A program made the position numbers and the translations under genes. The notes under the pieces are model-generated. The model was not told where the DNA came from, did not search any database, and saw only the letters and a list, made by a program, of their open reading frames with translations. 53,485 nucleotides of DNA from Enorma massiliensis phI (GTDB lineage Bacteria; Actinomycetota; Coriobacteriia; Coriobacteriales; Coriobacteriaceae), in NCBI RefSeq assembly GCF_000311845.1, contig NZ_HE978574.1:132252-185736 (forward strand). Reading direction: 5' to 3'. Shown one piece after another: positions 8,646 to 53,485 of this stretch. Each line of letters starts with the position of its first letter. Within the stretch, counting starts at the first letter, position 1.

Positions 8646-10509
8646 GTGCGGCACCTCCCTCCATGGTGGCGGATGCTTCGGCGGCGGTCACGGTTTCGGT
8701 GGCCGCGTCGTTGGCGGACGTATCGCCGGCAGCGGGCGCGGCGGTCTCGTCGGCGGTTGCGGCCGCGACCTCGTCCTCCTCGCCGGTGCGGTTCTGGCTC
8801 TCATAGGTATCGCGGTAGATGTCGCACGTCTGCATGAGCTCGGCGTGCGTTCCCAGGCCCGCGATATGGCCGTTGTCCAGTACAAGGATGCGGTCGGCGT
8901 GCTCCACGGAGCTCGTACGCTGGGCGATGATGATCTTGGTGGTCTCGGGCAGGTAGCTCGCCAAGCCTTCGCGGATGAGCGCATCGGTCTTGGTGTCCAC
9001 GGCGCTCGTGGAGTCGTCGAGGATCAGCACCTTGGGGTGCTTGAGCAGCGCACGGGCGATGCATAGGCGCTGCTTCTGGCCGCCCGACACGTTCGTGCCG
9101 CCCTGCTCGATATAGGTGTCGTACTTCTGCGGGAAGGTCTGGATGAACTCATCGGCTTGGGCGAGCTTGCACACCTCGACGAGCTCGTCGTACGTGGCGT
9201 TCGGGTCGCCCCAGCGCAGGTTCTCCTTGATGGTGCCGCTGAACAGCACGTTCTTCTGCAGCACCACGGCCACGTTGTTGCGCAGGAACTCCAGGTCATA
9301 GTCGCGTACGTCGACGCCGCCCACCTTCACGGAGCCCTCGGTCACGTCGTACAGGCGGCTGATGAGGTTCACGAGCGAGGTCTTGGCCGAACCGGTGCCG
9401 CCCATGATGCCCAAGGTCTCGCCGCTCTTGATGTGCAGGTCGATTTCGGCGAGGGCGCGGTGCTCCGCCTTCTCGGAGTAGTTGAACGTGACGTGGTCGA
9501 AGTCGATCGAGCCGTCCTTCATCTCGGTGACGGGGTTGGCCGGGTCCTTGATGGTGGGTTCGGTCTCGATGACCTCGACGATACGCTCGGCGCTCTCCTG
9601 CGCCATGACGATCATGGCGAAGACCATCGATACCATCATGAGGGCCATGAGGATCATGAAGCCATAGGTGGTGAGCGCGCTGAACTGGCCCACGTTGAGG
9701 AGGGTGCCGCGGCTCGAGATGATGAGGTAGCTGCCGAACTGGATGACCACGACGAACACCGTGTAGACGGCGAAGTTCATCATGGGGGTGTTGAGCGCGA
9801 GGATCTTCTCGGCGCGGGTGAAGTCGCGGCAGACATCCTGCGCGGCGCGGCTGAACTTCTGCTTCTCAAAGTCCTGGCGCACGTAGCTCTTCACATCGCG
9901 CATGCCGGTGACGTTTTCCTCGATGGACTCGTTCAGGGCATCGTACTTATGAAATACAGAGCGGAAGATGGGGTGCACCGTGCGCACGACTTTATACAGG
10001 CCGAAGCCGAGCAGGGGCACGACGATCACGAACACCGCGGCCATGGGGCCCGCCATGATGAAGGCCATGACGATGCTGCTGATGAGCAAGAGCGGGCAGC
10101 GCACGGCGGTGCGGATGACCATCATGTAGGCTAGCTGCACGTTGGTGATGTCGGTCGTGAGGCGCGTGACAAGCGAGCTCGACGAGAACTGGTCGATATT
10201 GGCGAAGCTGAACGTCTGCACGGCGGCGAACACGTCGTGGCGCAGGTTCTTGGCAAAGCCGCAGCTTGCCTGGCTGCACGTGAGGCCCGCGCCGATGCCG
10301 AAGGCGAGCGATGCCAGCGCCATGCACACGAGCACGCCCGCGTAGGGCAGCAGCTGAGCAAGGCCGGCGCCCAGCTGGATGGCATTGATGAGCTGCGCCG
10401 TGACGAACGGAATGGCCACCTCCATGACCACCTCGCCCGTCACGATGATGGGCGTCGCAATGGCCGCGCGCTTATACTCACGGATGCTCGCCATGAGTGT
10501 TTTAAGCAT
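8638..10509 (-). CDS. ABC exporter subunit with the degenerate NBD (heterodimer partner A)
   Basis: This is a 623-residue type I exporter half: six membrane helices, then a nucleotide-binding domain. Walker A is GGTGSAKT (Lys376) and the signature VSGGQ is canonical. The catalytic glutamate is replaced by Asp499 (ILDDSTSAVD), and the switch histidine by Gln530 (IAQRTSS). These are the hallmarks of the non-hydrolysing site of a heterodimer, completed by the neighbouring subunit. The C-terminal 50 residues are Ala/Glu-rich and disordered. The start has GGAGG 6 bases upstream and overlaps the marR stop by 8 bases, so the three genes form one coupled operon under the MarR protein. Confidence 0.93.
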   Translation of the reverse strand: MLKTLMASIREYKRAAIATPIIVTGEVVMEVAIPFVTAQLINAIQLGAGLAQLLPYAGVLVCMALASLAFGIGAGLTCSQASCGFAKNLRHDVFAAVQTFSFANIDQFSSSSLVTRLTTDITNVQLAYMMVIRTAVRCPLLLISSIVMAFIMAGPMAAVFVIVVPLLGFGLYKVVRTVHPIFRSVFHKYDALNESIEENVTGMRDVKSYVRQDFEKQKFSRAAQDVCRDFTRAEKILALNTPMMNFAVYTVFVVVIQFGSYLIISSRGTLLNVGQFSALTTYGFMILMALMMVSMVFAMIVMAQESAERIVEVIETEPTIKDPANPVTEMKDGSIDFDHVTFNYSEKAEHRALAEIDLHIKSGETLGIMGGTGSAKTSLVNLISRLYDVTEGSVKVGGVDVRDYDLEFLRNNVAVVLQKNVLFSGTIKENLRWGDPNATYDELVEVCKLAQADEFIQTFPQKYDTYIEQGGTNVSGGQKQRLCIARALLKHPKVLILDDSTSAVDTKTDALIREGLASYLPETTKIIIAQRTSSVEHADRILVLDNGHIAGLGTHAELMQTCDIYRDTYESQNRTGEEDEVAAATADETAAPAAGDTSANDAATETVTAAEASATMEGGAAHE

Positions 10510-48094: not shown

Positions 48095-48338
48095 GGGAGC
48101 CTTTCGTTTCACATGAGATGGAGCCCGCTTAGCGTATGACAGGCGCTTTCCGCTGGCAAGGCTATGGTTTCACCGAGATGCGCGGGCGGCGGCTCCGGGG
48201 GCGTGCGGCAGGAGATACATGGGGCATACGCTGCGCTGTTACGGGTGCGCAACAACGCGATGGCGTGCGGTACACTTCAGGTGGGCGAAGCGCCCGGTCG
48301 ACTGCTCCCATGTTCCGAACGAGGAAGCGAGGTTCCGC

Positions 48339-49475
48339 ATGCGTAGCGACGAAGGTTGGTATCTGGACGACGGCGGAACGCTGGTGGTCGACGGCTTCGT
48401 CCCGTGTGCGGACGAGGTTCCCTGGCAGCAGATCGCCGACCAAGTCCACGCGGTGAGCGTGCAGTCCGGTGCGCAGGTGGAGCGCTTGGATCGATTGTTC
48501 GCGGGTTGCCGCCATCTGACCGCCGTTGACGGCATGGAAAACCTGACGTGCCTCGGCGGCGCGGGTGCAGACGACGCGAGCGAGATGTTCGCGGGCTGCT
48601 CTGAGTTGCGCCGTATCGATCTTTCGGCATTTGACGCTTCGCGTTTGCGCAGCGCATGGGGCATGTTCCAAGATTGCCGCGAGCTGCGCGAGGTCGTCCT
48701 TCCCGCGCAGGGGTTTCCTGAGCTGCGCGAGGCGGGCGGCATGTTTCGCGGATGCCGTAGACTGCACTCGTTCGATTTCGCGGCGCTGGGTGCTCCGAAC
48801 CTCGAGGACGCGTCCGATTTCTTTCGGATGTGCACCTGGCTCGACGAGGTCTCGTTCATCGGCGCGCGAACCGGGCGGCTCGTCACGGCGGAGCGGATGT
48901 TCTATGGCTGCTGCAACCTGGCGCGCATTACGGGCGCCGATAGCCTGCAGACCGGTCGTATCGAAAACCTTTCCGGCATGTTCCGCTTTTGCGCGCGCCT
49001 GTCGCAGCTCGATTGCGCGTTGTGGGACACCGCGAGCGTCCGCGAGGCGAACTTCCTGTTCAGCGGCTGTTCGTCCCTCTCGCAACTCGATGTGTCCATG
49101 TGGCGCATGCCTCGCCTGCAGGCGGCGCGCGGCATGTTCTCCTATACGCCGATCGAGCGTGCGAGCCTGGCGGGCTGGGGCACCCATGAACTCATTGACG
49201 AGAGCTATATGTTCGACGGGTGCGCCTTGCTGCGCGAGGTGGCGTTCGGCACCATGGATCTCTCTGGCGTTTTGCGCGCACAGGGCATGTTCGACGGCTG
49301 CACGGCACTGGAGCGCATCGCGCACGAGGGACGTGGCATGGAGAACATCCGAAACGCGGCGCGGCTGTTCTTCGGCTGCAAGAGCTTGGAACATGTCCCC
49401 GGCGGTTTCGTTGATCTGGCGCTGGCGGAGGACGCCTATCGGGCTCGCGAGGGCTGCCCGGCGCCCTTGCCGTAG
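48339..49475 (+). CDS. Soluble DUF285 (BspA-like 26-residue repeat) protein
   Basis: This is a 378-residue protein made almost wholly of repeats of the form MFxGCxxLxxIDLSxFDxSxL, about ten in number, from residue 50 onward. These are DUF285 repeats, which are related to leucine-rich BspA-like repeats. There is no signal peptide, membrane helix or sorting signal, unlike most surface BspA-type proteins, so it should be cytosolic. The N-terminus MRSDEGWYLDDGGTLVVDG has no known domain. GAGG lies 6 bases before the ATG. It is the first of three plus-strand genes whose third member carries the same repeats behind a protein kinase. I infer a protein-protein interaction role; no activity is known. 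Confidence 0.75.
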   Translation: MRSDEGWYLDDGGTLVVDGFVPCADEVPWQQIADQVHAVSVQSGAQVERLDRLFAGCRHLTAVDGMENLTCLGGAGADDASEMFAGCSELRRIDLSAFDASRLRSAWGMFQDCRELREVVLPAQGFPELREAGGMFRGCRRLHSFDFAALGAPNLEDASDFFRMCTWLDEVSFIGARTGRLVTAERMFYGCCNLARITGADSLQTGRIENLSGMFRFCARLSQLDCALWDTASVREANFLFSGCSSLSQLDVSMWRMPRLQAARGMFSYTPIERASLAGWGTHELIDESYMFDGCALLREVAFGTMDLSGVLRAQGMFDGCTALERIAHEGRGMENIRNAARLFFGCKSLEHVPGGFVDLALAEDAYRAREGCPAPLP

Positions 49476-49714
49476 CGCTTGCGGTGTCACGCTGCCGCGG
49501 CGCTCGCTTCCCGCCGCAGCGCTCGCGCCCTTCGTGTTGCGCAACAGGGGCGCCGCCCGGCGATATCGTAGCCTTGCCAACCACGACGGGAGGAGCGTCT
49601 GCGAGCATCCTGCAACCGCCAATTAACGTCTGAGGAATGCCTCGCCGGCACCGTCCGACGAGCGCTGGATAGCGGTACCATTTTTTATAAGCACTGACAT
49701 GGGAGGCTGATGCC
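49476..49714. other. Intergenic region before the FHA gene
   Basis: It is GC-rich for 180 bases, then an AT island ATTTTTTATAAGC occurs about 30 bases before the next start and could hold a -10 (TATAAG), with no good -35. There is no hairpin with a T-tract after the DUF285 gene, so read-through is possible. Confidence 0.35.
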
Positions 49715-51415
49715 ATGGATACCATCACCGGCGACCTGTTCGAATTCTGCGCTATCACCAATGCTGCCCGTGAGGCGGTCAACCGGACGACGGGGGGAAC
49801 CGATGCGGAAGGCCTTCTCAAGGCGGGCTGGAAACAGGCGTTTGCCGATAAGTCCTACAAGTGCATGCGCGACATCATGCGCTTCCAGATGTCCGTCCGC
49901 GACCAAGCGGGCAAAGAGCAGGTGCTTGTGGTGAAGCTCAAGCAGGGCGACCCAAACAAGAAGCCGGCGCGCAAGAATCCCAAGCCGTACTACACCTACG
50001 GCATCGATCGCGAGGACGGTTCCCAACGTCCCTACCAGAGGCTGTGGGATTTTGCCTACGTGTCGGATAGCGCATATAAGCAGCTCATGGACCTCGCTCT
50101 GCCCGAGCCGTGGTCGTTTACCGATCGTGACGGCGGCCATGAGATTCTCAGCTGGTATCTCAACGGTACGTTTCTGCATCTGCTGGACGAGGAGAAGATT
50201 CGCTACGGACAGGATGCCCAGGGCAAGTTCGCGGTCTTCTGCACGGGTTTGGTCAACCGTAACTTCGAGGACATCTACTGCTTCTGTGAGCCGAACAGCA
50301 AGGCTAAAGCCGAATGGATCGTCAAGTCGTTCTGCACTAAGGGCTCGGGCAATGCTGGCAAGCGCCTTGTCCGCGCGCTCGGCACCGACATGCCCCAGCG
50401 AGCCGTGTACTACCGAACTCTGACCGACGTCGTGTACGACGGCTCCTTCGAGCTCGTGCCGGACTTCGAGCATCTGATGCTGCGCTGGAACCGCGTCGAA
50501 CCCTCTGCCCTGCGCGTGCTGTTCGCGGGTTCTGCTGAAGCGGCGCCCCTCATCGATGAGGCGGAGCGCGAATCCGATCCCAAGAAACGCCAGGAGCTCC
50601 TCGAGCCCTTGAAGGGAATCGTGGACGGCGACGAGCGCCTGCGCCGATCGCTGTGGCGGGCGCTGAGTGACGCGTGCGAGCTTGCGCAGACGCGGGCGCG
50701 CTACATGTTCTCCAGCGCCATCCCGTCGTGGAATCCGAAGCGCAGCAAGGGCGGCGAGGTCTTCTTCTGCCTGCCGCTGAGCTTGGTCGATGCCGACCGT
50801 GTGGACGCGGTGCTGGTAGCACGTAGGATCGAGGTCCAGCGCGACGGGGCGCCGTATTGCTACTACGAGGGCGAGACAATCTACTCGCTGCAGATGGCGT
50901 ACGAGCACGCGCGGACTCTCCAACGCGTCGACGGTCTCATGGGGTGGATTGAGTCGGCCTTCCCGTCTGTGGCCGCTAAGGGCTCGATTACCCCGGCAGG
51001 CGGTGACTCGGCTTTCTCGAGTACGATCGCACCGTCTATGACGCCGCGGCTGGGCAACGATGATGAGCAAGACGACCCATCCTCGCGCTTGGCTCGCCTG
51101 GCGCCCGAGGATCCCGCGATGGGGACGTACGTGGTGCGGCCCGGCGACGTGATCGGCGTGGCGCGTCGCAGCAGTGACCCTGCGCCCGATATCGTGCTGC
51201 CCTCGATACGTACATTCAAGTACGTGTCACAGCGGCACGGCACGTTCACGTGCGCCGGCGGCACCTGGAGCTATGAGCAGCACGATGTGAACGGCACCAA
51301 GGTGCGCCATCTCGACGGGTCTGTTCAAAAGCTGACCAAAGGTTCCAAGACCGAGCTCGCCTCTGGCGACGAGCTGTCGTTCGCCGAGTCGGCGTGGATG
51401 AAGTTCATGGTGTAG
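49715..51415 (+). CDS. DUF3825 domain protein with C-terminal FHA domain
   Basis: This is a 566-residue soluble protein. The middle (about 120-400) resembles DUF3825: ILSWYLNGTFLHLLDEEKI, then FAVFCTGLVNRNFEDIYCFCEPN. That domain is found with RNA-binding modules in other proteins but has no proven activity. After an Asp/Ser-rich linker (about 430-460) comes an FHA domain (about 468-566): GDVIGVARR, VSQRHGTF and VNGTKVR are the phosphothreonine-binding Gly, Ser-x-x-His and Asn-Gly-Thr positions, followed by LASGDELSFA. GGGAGG lies about 8 bases before the ATG. It is followed after 36 bases by a Ser/Thr kinase gene, which could supply the phosphothreonine ligand. Confidence 0.8.
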   Translation: MDTITGDLFEFCAITNAAREAVNRTTGGTDAEGLLKAGWKQAFADKSYKCMRDIMRFQMSVRDQAGKEQVLVVKLKQGDPNKKPARKNPKPYYTYGIDREDGSQRPYQRLWDFAYVSDSAYKQLMDLALPEPWSFTDRDGGHEILSWYLNGTFLHLLDEEKIRYGQDAQGKFAVFCTGLVNRNFEDIYCFCEPNSKAKAEWIVKSFCTKGSGNAGKRLVRALGTDMPQRAVYYRTLTDVVYDGSFELVPDFEHLMLRWNRVEPSALRVLFAGSAEAAPLIDEAERESDPKKRQELLEPLKGIVDGDERLRRSLWRALSDACELAQTRARYMFSSAIPSWNPKRSKGGEVFFCLPLSLVDADRVDAVLVARRIEVQRDGAPYCYYEGETIYSLQMAYEHARTLQRVDGLMGWIESAFPSVAAKGSITPAGGDSAFSSTIAPSMTPRLGNDDEQDDPSSRLARLAPEDPAMGTYVVRPGDVIGVARRSSDPAPDIVLPSIRTFKYVSQRHGTFTCAGGTWSYEQHDVNGTKVRHLDGSVQKLTKGSKTELASGDELSFAESAWMKFMV

Positions 51416-51451
51416 CGCAGGTACCTTCGCATGTGAGCAGGGGAGAAGGAC

Positions 51452-53485
51452 ATGGGAGAGCATATCCGGTTGGAGTCCGTGTGGTATAACGCGCCGGTCG
51501 TCGGAAAGAACGGCTCGTCGTCCATCGATCCGCTGACCGCAAGCCGGATTGACGAGGGCGGCTACGCCACGATCTACCGCGTACCGATCCAGCCCGGCCT
51601 GCCGGTCGGCGGCATCCTCAAGGTGTTCAAGCGCTTTCCGGAGCCGTACCGGGCAGGCGAGCGTCTCCGCCGCAAGGCGAAATGGGGCGCTCTATACGAT
51701 GAGTACGATATGCTCTGCGCGCTCGACGGACTCGACGGCCACGTGCCGCAGGCCTACGCGTGCGGGTTCCTCGTGATCGACGACGGGGCTGGCGGTGTCA
51801 CGTACAGCCCTGCCTTCCTTATGGAGGAGGTCGGCAGTCCCGCTGAGCGGCTCGATAAGGTATTGCAGAAACACCGCAGGCCGTTCGGAGCGGGGCAGGT
51901 CGCGACGTTCGGCCTGCGCATGCTGGACGTGCTCGACCTTCTTGCCGAGCAAGGGAAGGGGAAGAAGAGGGGGATCGCCCATGCCGACCTGTCGCCTTGG
52001 AACGTGTACGTGCGATGCTCCTCGGATGACGGGGTCTTCGATTGGGTCTACCTGATCGACTTCGGCCAGTCTAAGTATGCGGACGAGGACGTGACCCCTT
52101 CATTTGCGCCGGGCGTGCACCCGCGTATGGGCATGGTGGAGTACTGCGCCCCGGAGTCAATCCCCAAGTTCGCGCTGCGAGAGAGGGATTCGGAAGCCTG
52201 CCGCGAGCACGATGAGCTGTATGACCTGCGCAACGACCCAGAGGTCGATCTTTGGTCGCTCGGCGCCCTGATGTACCAGCTCGCGCTGCGCAAGGCGCCG
52301 AGGTATTCGGTGCAGTACGCCAAGCGCGGCGATGTTTCGGGCTTCTGGCGTGGAGAGGTGAAGCTCGATGACGACGATGCGTTTCGTGCACTGATCGAGG
52401 AGAAGCGCGATAGCCTGAGCCTCCCAGACTATATGAATGAGGAGCGCGAGTTGCTGCTTGGCCAGGCGATCGCGCTCTGCACCGCCTGGGATCCGCGCGC
52501 CCGCGATCGCCTCCATATTCGTCGCCTGCTCACGCGGGTGGCGGAGGGTACGGATGACGAGCGTTTCCAGCAGATGACGTACGTGCCCGAAGTGACGCCG
52601 ACGCTCGAGGATGGGGGCGGCTCCGAGCAGGGTGCCCGTGTCGAGTCGGGCGTCGTACTCGCCGGCGTGTACAAGCTGACCGGCCCCGATGGCACGCCGT
52701 TTTCGGACGCAGAGGCCGACCTGCTCGTCTTCGGCGACAGCAAGCAAACCGTAGACATTCGGGAATACCGTTACCGCGGCGTGACGTACGCTGCCGAACA
52801 CGTGGGGCCGTGCTACGACATGAGCTGCGGTGGGTGGGGCGTGAAGGAGTGGCAAAGCGATTCTCCCTGGCAGAGTATCAAAATCGTCGACTTTTTGACC
52901 AAGGTTCGCCCTGCGAGGATGCGCGCGTGGTTTGCGGGGTGCAAAAACCTTACCGAGTTGCTGCACATCGACCGCCTGGACACCTCTGCGGTGACTGACA
53001 TGCAGTTCATGTTCCACGATTGCTCGTCGCTCGAATACGTGGACGTGTTCGGGTTCGACACCTCGCAGGTCGAGCGCATGAATGCCATGTTCCACGGGTG
53101 CGCGGCGCTGCAGGGGATCAACGTGGGTGGCTTCGACACATCGAAGGTCATCTCCATGACCAGCATGTTCAATGGATGCTCGGCGCTCGTCGTGTTGGAT
53201 GTTGGACGCTTCAAGACGGACAAGGTCCAGTCATTTGACTTCATGTTCAACGACTGCTCCTCGCTGCGACGGCTCGACGTCTCCGGCTTTAGGACGCCGT
53301 ACGTCGAGTCGTTCAAGTCGATGTTCTGCGGCTGCTCCTCGCTGCGGGAGCTCGACGTCTCGGGGTTCGACACCTCGTCTGCCACGGACATGGGCTGGAT
53401 GTTCTACGGCTGCGGCGGGCTCGAGGCACTCGATGTCTCCGGCTTCAGGACGCCGCATGTAGAGTCGTTCAAGTCGATGTTCTAC
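51452..53485 (+). CDS. Ser/Thr protein kinase with C-terminal DUF285 repeats (truncated by the window)
   Basis: The open frame runs off the right edge after 678 codons. Residues about 35-350 are a Hanks-type kinase: glycine loop DEGGYATIYRV, Lys57 in ILKVFK, catalytic Asp179 in HADLSPWN, Asp203 in IDFGQSK, YCAPES in place of the APE motif, and DLWSLG. The HRD Arg is Ala, so activation-loop phosphorylation may not be needed. A linker (about 370-490) leads to at least six 26-residue DUF285 repeats (MFxxCxxLxxLDVSGFDTSxVxxM). No membrane helix is seen, unlike PASTA kinases. GGAGAAGGA precedes the ATG. It is co-transcribed with the FHA protein and probably acts with it. The end and any further domain are outside the window. 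Confidence 0.85.
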   Translation, partial: MGEHIRLESVWYNAPVVGKNGSSSIDPLTASRIDEGGYATIYRVPIQPGLPVGGILKVFKRFPEPYRAGERLRRKAKWGALYDEYDMLCALDGLDGHVPQAYACGFLVIDDGAGGVTYSPAFLMEEVGSPAERLDKVLQKHRRPFGAGQVATFGLRMLDVLDLLAEQGKGKKRGIAHADLSPWNVYVRCSSDDGVFDWVYLIDFGQSKYADEDVTPSFAPGVHPRMGMVEYCAPESIPKFALRERDSEACREHDELYDLRNDPEVDLWSLGALMYQLALRKAPRYSVQYAKRGDVSGFWRGEVKLDDDDAFRALIEEKRDSLSLPDYMNEERELLLGQAIALCTAWDPRARDRLHIRRLLTRVAEGTDDERFQQMTYVPEVTPTLEDGGGSEQGARVESGVVLAGVYKLTGPDGTPFSDAEADLLVFGDSKQTVDIREYRYRGVTYAAEHVGPCYDMSCGGWGVKEWQSDSPWQSIKIVDFLTKVRPARMRAWFAGCKNLTELLHIDRLDTSAVTDMQFMFHDCSSLEYVDVFGFDTSQVERMNAMFHGCAALQGINVGGFDTSKVISMTSMFNGCSALVVLDVGRFKTDKVQSFDFMFNDCSSLRRLDVSGFRTPYVESFKSMFCGCSSLRELDVSGFDTSSATDMGWMFYGCGGLEALDVSGFRTPHVESFKSMFY
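53276..53485 (+). repeat. Nucleotide-level duplication inside the kinase DUF285 array
   Basis: Positions 53276-53329 and 53432-53485 are 54-bp near-identical copies (differences at five positions) with a period of 156 bp, which is exactly two 26-residue repeats. The likeness at silent sites points to recent duplication or gene conversion inside the array. Confidence 0.8.

What the first reader, a model, noticed from the sequence alone, without database searches (positions are those of the whole stretch)
48339..53485. Possible new phosphosignalling module: DUF285 protein, DUF3825-FHA protein and DUF285-tailed Ser/Thr kinase
Three adjacent plus-strand genes combine a soluble kinase with an interaction-repeat tail, a phosphothreonine-binding FHA domain on an uncharacterised domain, and a stand-alone protein of the same repeats. 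Seen directly: the kinase motifs (Lys57, Asp179, Asp203), the FHA signature and the shared 26-residue repeats. Established: FHA domains bind phosphothreonine made by Hanks kinases, and kinase/FHA groups such as the TerY-P triads act in stress or conflict. Inferred: the repeats dock or sense, the kinase marks the FHA protein or a shared target, and DUF3825 is the effector. DUF285 is usually a surface repeat, so cytosolic use with a kinase is unusual.
Basis: partly seen in the sequence, partly recalled or inferred. Interest (0 to 1): 0.85.

Follow-up and report, generated by a model that had tools for sequence, protein, structure and literature searches.

The report
Extra cytosolic kinase-phosphatase-FHA gene cassette
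The window ends inside a seven-gene, recurrent bacterial cassette that encodes a complete internal protein-phosphorylation circuit (kinase with a repeat-protein tail, matching phosphatase, three phospho-reading FHA proteins, two repeat proteins); it appears to be an accessory relative of the actinobacterial cell-wall-control operon, and its signal and target are unknown.

Summary
The three genes are real, and are the first half of a seven-gene cassette in a Coriobacteriaceae genome. Beyond the window lie the rest of the kinase (more DUF285 repeats, SEC-C motif), an FHA protein, a PstP-like PP2C phosphatase, an FhaA-type FHA protein and a second DUF285 protein. All seven look cytosolic. The genome's only DUF285 domains are here, and it has a separate canonical pstP envelope operon, so this is an extra circuit. 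Kinase, PP2C and FHA genes recur together in six other coriobacterial loci, with DUF3825-FHA directly upstream of the kinase in five. Kinase tails are swapped: DUF285, BspA LRR, and in more distant loci Sel1, STAND-TPR or DUF6273. An FhaA_N domain, a SEDS-like gene in one relative and a RodA-PBP gene in another tie it to the pstP operon. It is absent at the same site in congeners and lies outside the adjacent tRNA-integrated element. It is not TerY-P (no vWA) and matched no named defence system. Best reading: an accessory, cytosolic offshoot of PknB/PstP/FhaA signalling with an exchangeable repeat tail and DUF3825-FHA as phospho-controlled output. Substrate, signal and DUF3825's activity are unproven.

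The parts
48219..49475 (+). Gene A: cytosolic DUF285/PARCEL (BspA-like LRR) repeat protein, 418 aa; homologue in G236 46% identical
49715..51415 (+). Gene B: DUF3825 + C-terminal FHA protein, 566 aa; directly upstream of the kinase in G236, G184, G232, L053, L055
50084..50932 (+). DUF3825 domain of gene B (residues 124-406)
   Evidence: PF12873 E 3.8e-43
51074..51412 (+). FHA domain of gene B (residues 454-566)
51452..53485 (+). Gene C: soluble Ser/Thr kinase with DUF285 tail; cut by window end, continues to genome position C1:186655 with more DUF285 repeats and a SEC-C motif, across a 262-N gap
51539..52531 (+). Kinase catalytic domain; K57, D179, N184, D203, APE and DxWSxG present and conserved
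52916..53485 (+). First part of the 26-residue DUF285/PARCEL repeat tail of the kinase

Best explanation
An accessory, wholly cytosolic reversible Ser/Thr phosphosignalling cassette, related to and probably branched from the actinobacterial envelope operon fhaA-fhaB-pstP-rodA-pbpA-pknB. SHOWN BY SEQUENCE: kinase and PP2C both keep their catalytic residues; three proteins end in FHA domains (with DUF3825, with an FhaA_N-type domain, and with a mostly helical N-terminal region); two stand-alone DUF285 proteins share the kinase tail's repeats; the gene set recurs in several coriobacteria, with kinase tails exchanged among repeat types. INFERRED: the kinase has traded PknB's membrane anchor and PASTA sensor for an intracellular repeat tail that binds a protein ligand or docks the substrate. 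The stand-alone DUF285 proteins, built on the same repeats (one also shares the kinase tail's N-terminal cap), bind the same partner or the tail itself and tune the kinase. Active kinase phosphorylates threonines on itself and on partners; the FHA proteins read these and assemble around the kinase; the DUF3825 protein is the switched output; the PP2C resets the circuit.
For: Gene content beyond the window. The kinase profile at E < 1e-100 finds 5 of 249 genomes in the order; all five have PP2C and FHA genes beside it, and DUF3825-FHA lies directly upstream in four of them. Two further named loci, L053 and L055, repeat DUF3825-FHA/kinase/PP2C. A separate canonical pstP operon with a PASTA PknB exists in the same genome. 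The FHA2 N-terminus is an FhaA_N homologue: hhalign score 74.5 against at most 20.8 for 50 column shuffles. The PP2C profile's best solved relative is M. tuberculosis PstP. G236 carries a SEDS-like gene inside the cassette (spoVE model E 6e-8; hhalign E 7e-5, score 42.6 against at most 21.6 for shuffles); L056 has RodA-PBP beside FhaA, PP2C and kinase. No transmembrane segment in the seven proteins (kinase tail beyond the gap not included). DUF285 occurs nowhere else in the genome. Tail exchange: DUF285, LRR_5, Sel1, STAND-TPR, DUF6273. Site empty in congeners.
Against: No phosphorylation, binding or phenotype data. Descent from the envelope operon is not resolved: DUF285-tailed and LRR_5-tailed kinases form two separate clades with long branches, so the cassette could have been assembled more than once. 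The own cassette has no SEDS or PBP gene. The N-terminal part of the FHA1-type protein shows no homology between the Coriobacteriaceae type and the Atopobiaceae type. The module is rare, mostly from MAGs, and the middle of the own kinase tail is unread (N run). The fold and activity of DUF3825 remain unknown.
Confidence: 0.6

Rival explanations
1. A conflict or anti-phage system: the repeat tails recognise an invader protein, the kinase fires, and DUF3825-FHA or another FHA protein shuts the cell down.
For: Accessory, in a variable slot beside a tRNA-integrated element; relatives beside TraG or Mob genes; swapped tails including a STAND-TPR; kinase weakly resembles defence kinases MAD6 and PD-T4-6.
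Against: No nuclease, protease or pore domain recognised; the PADLOC matches of the kinase are generic kinase matches and no other gene matches; the neighbouring element is shared with G138, which lacks the module; nothing found in viral contigs or plasmids.
Confidence: 0.2
2. A specialised second envelope or division regulator, doing the same job as PknB/PstP/FhaA for another SEDS enzyme or growth phase.
For: FhaA_N, PstP-like PP2C, SEDS-like gene in G236, RodA-PBP in L056.
Against: All seven own products look soluble; no SEDS or PBP gene in the own cassette; extracellular PASTA sensing is replaced by an intracellular repeat tail.
Confidence: 0.3
3. Chance or decaying neighbourhood: unrelated genes swept together, with PARCEL repeats spreading as mobile sequence.
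For: PARCELs are described as horizontally spread (PMC2996958); module is rare; G236 has a short 87-aa DUF285 ORF that looks like a remnant.
Against: Same gene set adjacent at 25-60% identity in several genera and two families; conserved catalytic residues; own ORFs open apart from the N run.
Confidence: 0.05

Closest known systems
Actinobacterial pstP operon (fhaA-fhaB-pstP-rodA-pbpA-pknA/B)
   Same: Kinase + PP2C + FHA readers in one locus; FhaA_N-type FHA protein; PstP-like phosphatase; SEDS-like or RodA-PBP gene in some relatives
   Different: Own cassette has no RodA/PBP; kinase is soluble, without PASTA, with a DUF285 tail; DUF3825-FHA and stand-alone DUF285 proteins added; accessory, and present beside the canonical operon
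TerY-P triads
   Same: Kinase and PP2C side by side
   Different: No vWA protein in the cassette; FHA and repeat proteins instead
T6SS threonine phosphorylation pathway (PpkA/PppA/Fha)
   Same: Kinase, PP2C and FHA protein logic
   Different: No T6SS gene in the cassette; kinase has no membrane anchor; TagH model only E 0.016, far below cut-off
Lachnospiraceae/Negativicutes kinase / trypsin-FHA / PP2C clusters (L058, L072, L074, L091)
   Same: PP2C plus FHA-fused output protein, with a kinase nearby in most
   Different: Output is a trypsin-like protease; kinase and PP2C are distant
PARCEL/DUF285 surface proteins (Mycoplasma, Listeria)
   Same: Same 25-26-residue repeat family (TIGR02167, E about 1e-52 in two of the three proteins)
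   Different: No hydrophobic segment; fused to a kinase or encoded beside it; PMC2996958 left the role of such 'untargeted' PARCEL ORFs open

Membership tests
TerY-P triad | vWA (TerY-like) protein with kinase and PP2C | tested here: not met
   Pfam scans of all seven proteins show no vWA
Actinobacterial pstP operon | PP2C phosphatase of PstP type | tested here: met
   PF13672; best solved relative PstP
Actinobacterial pstP operon | FhaA with FhaA_N domain | tested here: met
   hhalign prob 97.4, score 74.5 against control maximum 20.8; Pfam itself does not call it in the own protein
Actinobacterial pstP operon | membrane PASTA kinase PknB | tested here: not met
   no TM, no PASTA in the cassette kinase; canonical PknB-PASTA is elsewhere
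Actinobacterial pstP operon | rodA and pbpA in the locus | tested here: not met
   absent from the own cassette; SEDS-like gene in G236, RodA-PBP in L056
T6SS TPP pathway | linked T6SS genes, TagH/Fha | tested here: not met
   no T6SS family among the scanned cassette and flanking genes; TagH E 0.016, 15 bits against a cut-off of 120
Named anti-phage systems (PADLOC-DB 2.0.0) | match of the component set to a system's models | tested here: not met
   kinase gives partial generic kinase matches only; no other gene matches
Hanks-type Ser/Thr kinase | VAIK Lys, HxD, DFG, APE, DxWxxG motifs | tested here: met
FHA domain (gene B) | FHA fold with pThr-contact Arg, Ser, Asn | tested here: met
   Z 13.8 to solved FHA domains; R484/R485, S505, N526 invariant; phosphopeptide binding itself not testable
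PARCEL/DUF285 repeat | tandem 25-26-aa repeat matching PF03382 / TIGR02167 | tested here: met

The most novel reading that the evidence does not exclude
A previously undescribed family of cytosolic bacterial kinase circuits in which the kinase carries exchangeable repeat or recognition tails (PARCEL/DUF285, BspA LRR, Sel1, STAND-TPR), used like immune-receptor recognition domains, with DUF3825-FHA as the phospho-gated effector: an LRR-receptor-kinase-like arrangement inside bacteria.
Probability: 0.22. Interest if true: 0.8.

Novelty: new variant of a known kind. Interest (0 to 1): 0.55.

Why it matters
It gives DUF3825 (no paper found in the library) a first testable signalling context and gives cytosolic PARCEL/DUF285 proteins, whose role was left open in PMC2996958, a concrete one: tail and partner of a protein kinase. 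It also suggests that the PstP/FhaA/PknB circuit, known as envelope control and often with the only Ser/Thr phosphatase of an actinobacterium (PMC6554272), has an accessory cytosolic relative with swappable tails.

Tried and rejected
First genome-contig scan with the DUF3825-FHA protein: nothing confirmed. Viral contigs with PP2C and kinase profiles, and plasmids with the kinase: nothing. Kinase search in 396 genomes of the phylum at 1e-30: only the own genome. Structure search for DUF3825: the FHA domain filled the match list, so no fold statement about DUF3825 is possible. Model of the FHA1-type protein: mean pLDDT 69, not searched. Papers on DUF3825: none; DUF285 with kinase: 16 papers, none of which by title or opening abstract describes such a fusion. 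Considered whether the cassette is cargo of the neighbouring integrative element: rejected, because G138 has the element at about 95% identity without the cassette, and the tRNA-derived repeats bracket the element only. Promoter/terminator scan no better than shuffles.

Full report
WHAT IS THERE. The window is G000:C1:132252-185736 of a 2.28-Mb genome whose genus also holds G236, an assembly titled 'uncultured Coriobacteriaceae'. Reading on to C1:191162 (L003) gives seven co-directional genes. A: DUF285 protein, window 48219-49475. B: DUF3825-FHA, 49715-51415. C: kinase with DUF285 tail, 51452 to genome position 186655, interrupted by a run of 262 N that is probably mis-sized, because the frame resumes one base off. 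D: FHA protein (FHA1), L003 6733-7839. E: PP2C, L003 7924-8859 (ORF from 7846). F: FhaA-type FHA protein (FHA2), L003 8974-10050. G: DUF285 protein, L003 10129-11163. Pfam calls. Starts chosen by Shine-Dalgarno-like sequences. From B to G the gaps are under 130 bases, so B-G is probably one operon; A is separated by 240 bases.

PARTS. The kinase has K57, HADLS (D179), N184, IDFGQ (D203), APE and DxWSxG, with K57, D179, N184 and D203 invariant in six homologues. The PP2C keeps the acidic, DG and DN motifs that are invariant among four homologues; its best solved relative is M. tuberculosis PstP. FHA in B: the model matches solved FHA domains at Z 13.8. F's N-terminal region is homologous to FhaA_N proteins, although Pfam misses it. 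The highest 19-residue Kyte-Doolittle mean in the proteins tested is 1.54, so no transmembrane segment is expected. The repeats are PARCEL/DUF285 with a 78-nt period. G shares the kinase tail's repeats and its N-terminal cap (36% identity over 294 residues). The own kinase and one G236 kinase end in a SEC-C motif.

CONSERVATION. In 249 genomes of the order, the kinase profile at E < 1e-100 finds G000, G236 (two copies), G096, G232 and G184. Each has PP2C and FHA genes adjacent. A DUF3825-FHA fusion was found in four of these five genomes, immediately upstream of the kinase, and in no other surveyed genome's matches (by hand, if placements were random, about 3e-8, ignoring kinship). A scan of named genomes with the PP2C profile returned eight coriobacterial loci, L049-L056, all with kinase and PP2C together (the PP2C of L049 and L051 is the scan match itself, missed by my gene caller). 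Five have DUF3825-FHA just upstream (L049 = G236, L051 = G232, L052 = G184, L053, L055); L050 is Olsenella sp. SW781 (G096); L054 and L056 are more distant. So six loci besides the own one carry the close form (L049-L053 and L055). Gene sets: G236 = DUF285, SEDS-like, DUF3825-FHA, two kinases, FHA1, PP2C, FHA2; Olsenella = kinase-DUF285, PP2C, FHA2, HSP70-like, weakly GrpE-like, FHA1; Atopobiaceae type (L051, L053) = FHA, small FHA, DUF3825-FHA, kinase-LRR_5, PP2C. Tails elsewhere: Sel1 in G168, STAND-type NTPase plus TPR in G213, DUF6273 in L056. The PP2C of these cassettes is normally additional to others in the genome.

RELATION TO THE ENVELOPE OPERON. The own genome has a normal locus at C2: an FhaA-like protein, a small FHA protein, PP2C, a RodA-PBP fusion and a PASTA PknB. 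Three observations connect the cassette to that family: the FhaA_N domain of F; a SEDS-like gene inside the G236 cassette; and L056, where an FHA protein, RodA-PBP, FhaA, PP2C and a non-PASTA kinase sit together. In the kinase tree the L056 kinase groups with the LRR_5-tailed kinases (96/96), while DUF285-tailed kinases form their own clade (100/99); deeper branches are unresolved. So 'related to the pstP operon' is well supported; 'descended once from it' is not shown. PMC6554272 describes pstP as conserved in a cell-wall locus across Actinobacteria and often the sole Ser/Thr phosphatase.

MOBILITY. In G230 the transporter gene left of the cassette is followed after about 1 kb by the tRNA gene, with no cassette; G138 also lacks it, and its tRNA-integrated element (own 191280-212834, bracketed by 45-base identical repeats) is the same at about 95% identity. 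The cassette is thus an accessory insertion next to, not inside, that element. It lies in a different neighbourhood in G236 (a radical SAM/BATS gene and a thiamine-phosphate synthase gene upstream).

MECHANISM. Shown by sequence: kinase and phosphatase with intact catalytic residues, three FHA readers, repeat tail and partners with the same repeats, predicted cytosolic location, recurrent co-location. Inferred: repeat tail as sensor or dock, stand-alone DUF285 proteins as competitors or adaptors, FHA-dependent assembly, DUF3825 as output, PP2C as reset. About 0.6 for the general circuit; no more than 0.3 for either an envelope or a defence role.

LIMITS. Most comparison genomes are MAGs; the module is rare; gene calls in other loci come from my own codon-model caller, which missed some PP2C genes; no experiment was possible. 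FHA phosphothreonine reading, TerY-P and T6SS comparisons use general knowledge of those families besides the tests listed.

Noticed in passing
L003 11281 to L004 12835 (genome C1:191280-212834): Integrative element with tyrosine recombinase, D5-like primase, coiled-coil protein and a 1812-aa protein, integrated at a tRNA gene; same element about 95% identical in congener G138.
   Followed up: partly
L072:10791-14669 (-): Clostridia protein of 1293 aa that fuses an ECF-type sigma-70 factor to a very long BspA-type LRR array, next to a PP2C / trypsin-FHA / PP2C / kinase cluster: another apparently cytosolic BspA-LRR signalling protein.
   Followed up: no
L042:5534-9202 (-) and 9475-10200 (+): Kinase fused to a STAND-like NTPase and TPRs, divergent from a PP2C gene, beside a Mob_Pre gene.
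   Followed up: partly
L040:10270-12965: HSP70-like and weakly GrpE-like genes inside the Olsenella cassette between FHA2 and FHA1.
   Followed up: no
L058, L072, L074, L091: Firmicutes clusters of PP2C genes with a trypsin-like protease fused to an FHA domain, most with a kinase nearby: same logic with a protease output.
   Followed up: partly
L056:1314-10341: Coriobacteriales locus with FHA protein / RodA-PBP fusion / FhaA / PP2C / kinase whose C-terminus is DUF6273 instead of PASTA.
   Followed up: partly
L003:5738-5999: 262-N run inside the kinase tail between near-identical repeats; frame resumes one base off, so the gap size is probably wrong.
   Followed up: yes
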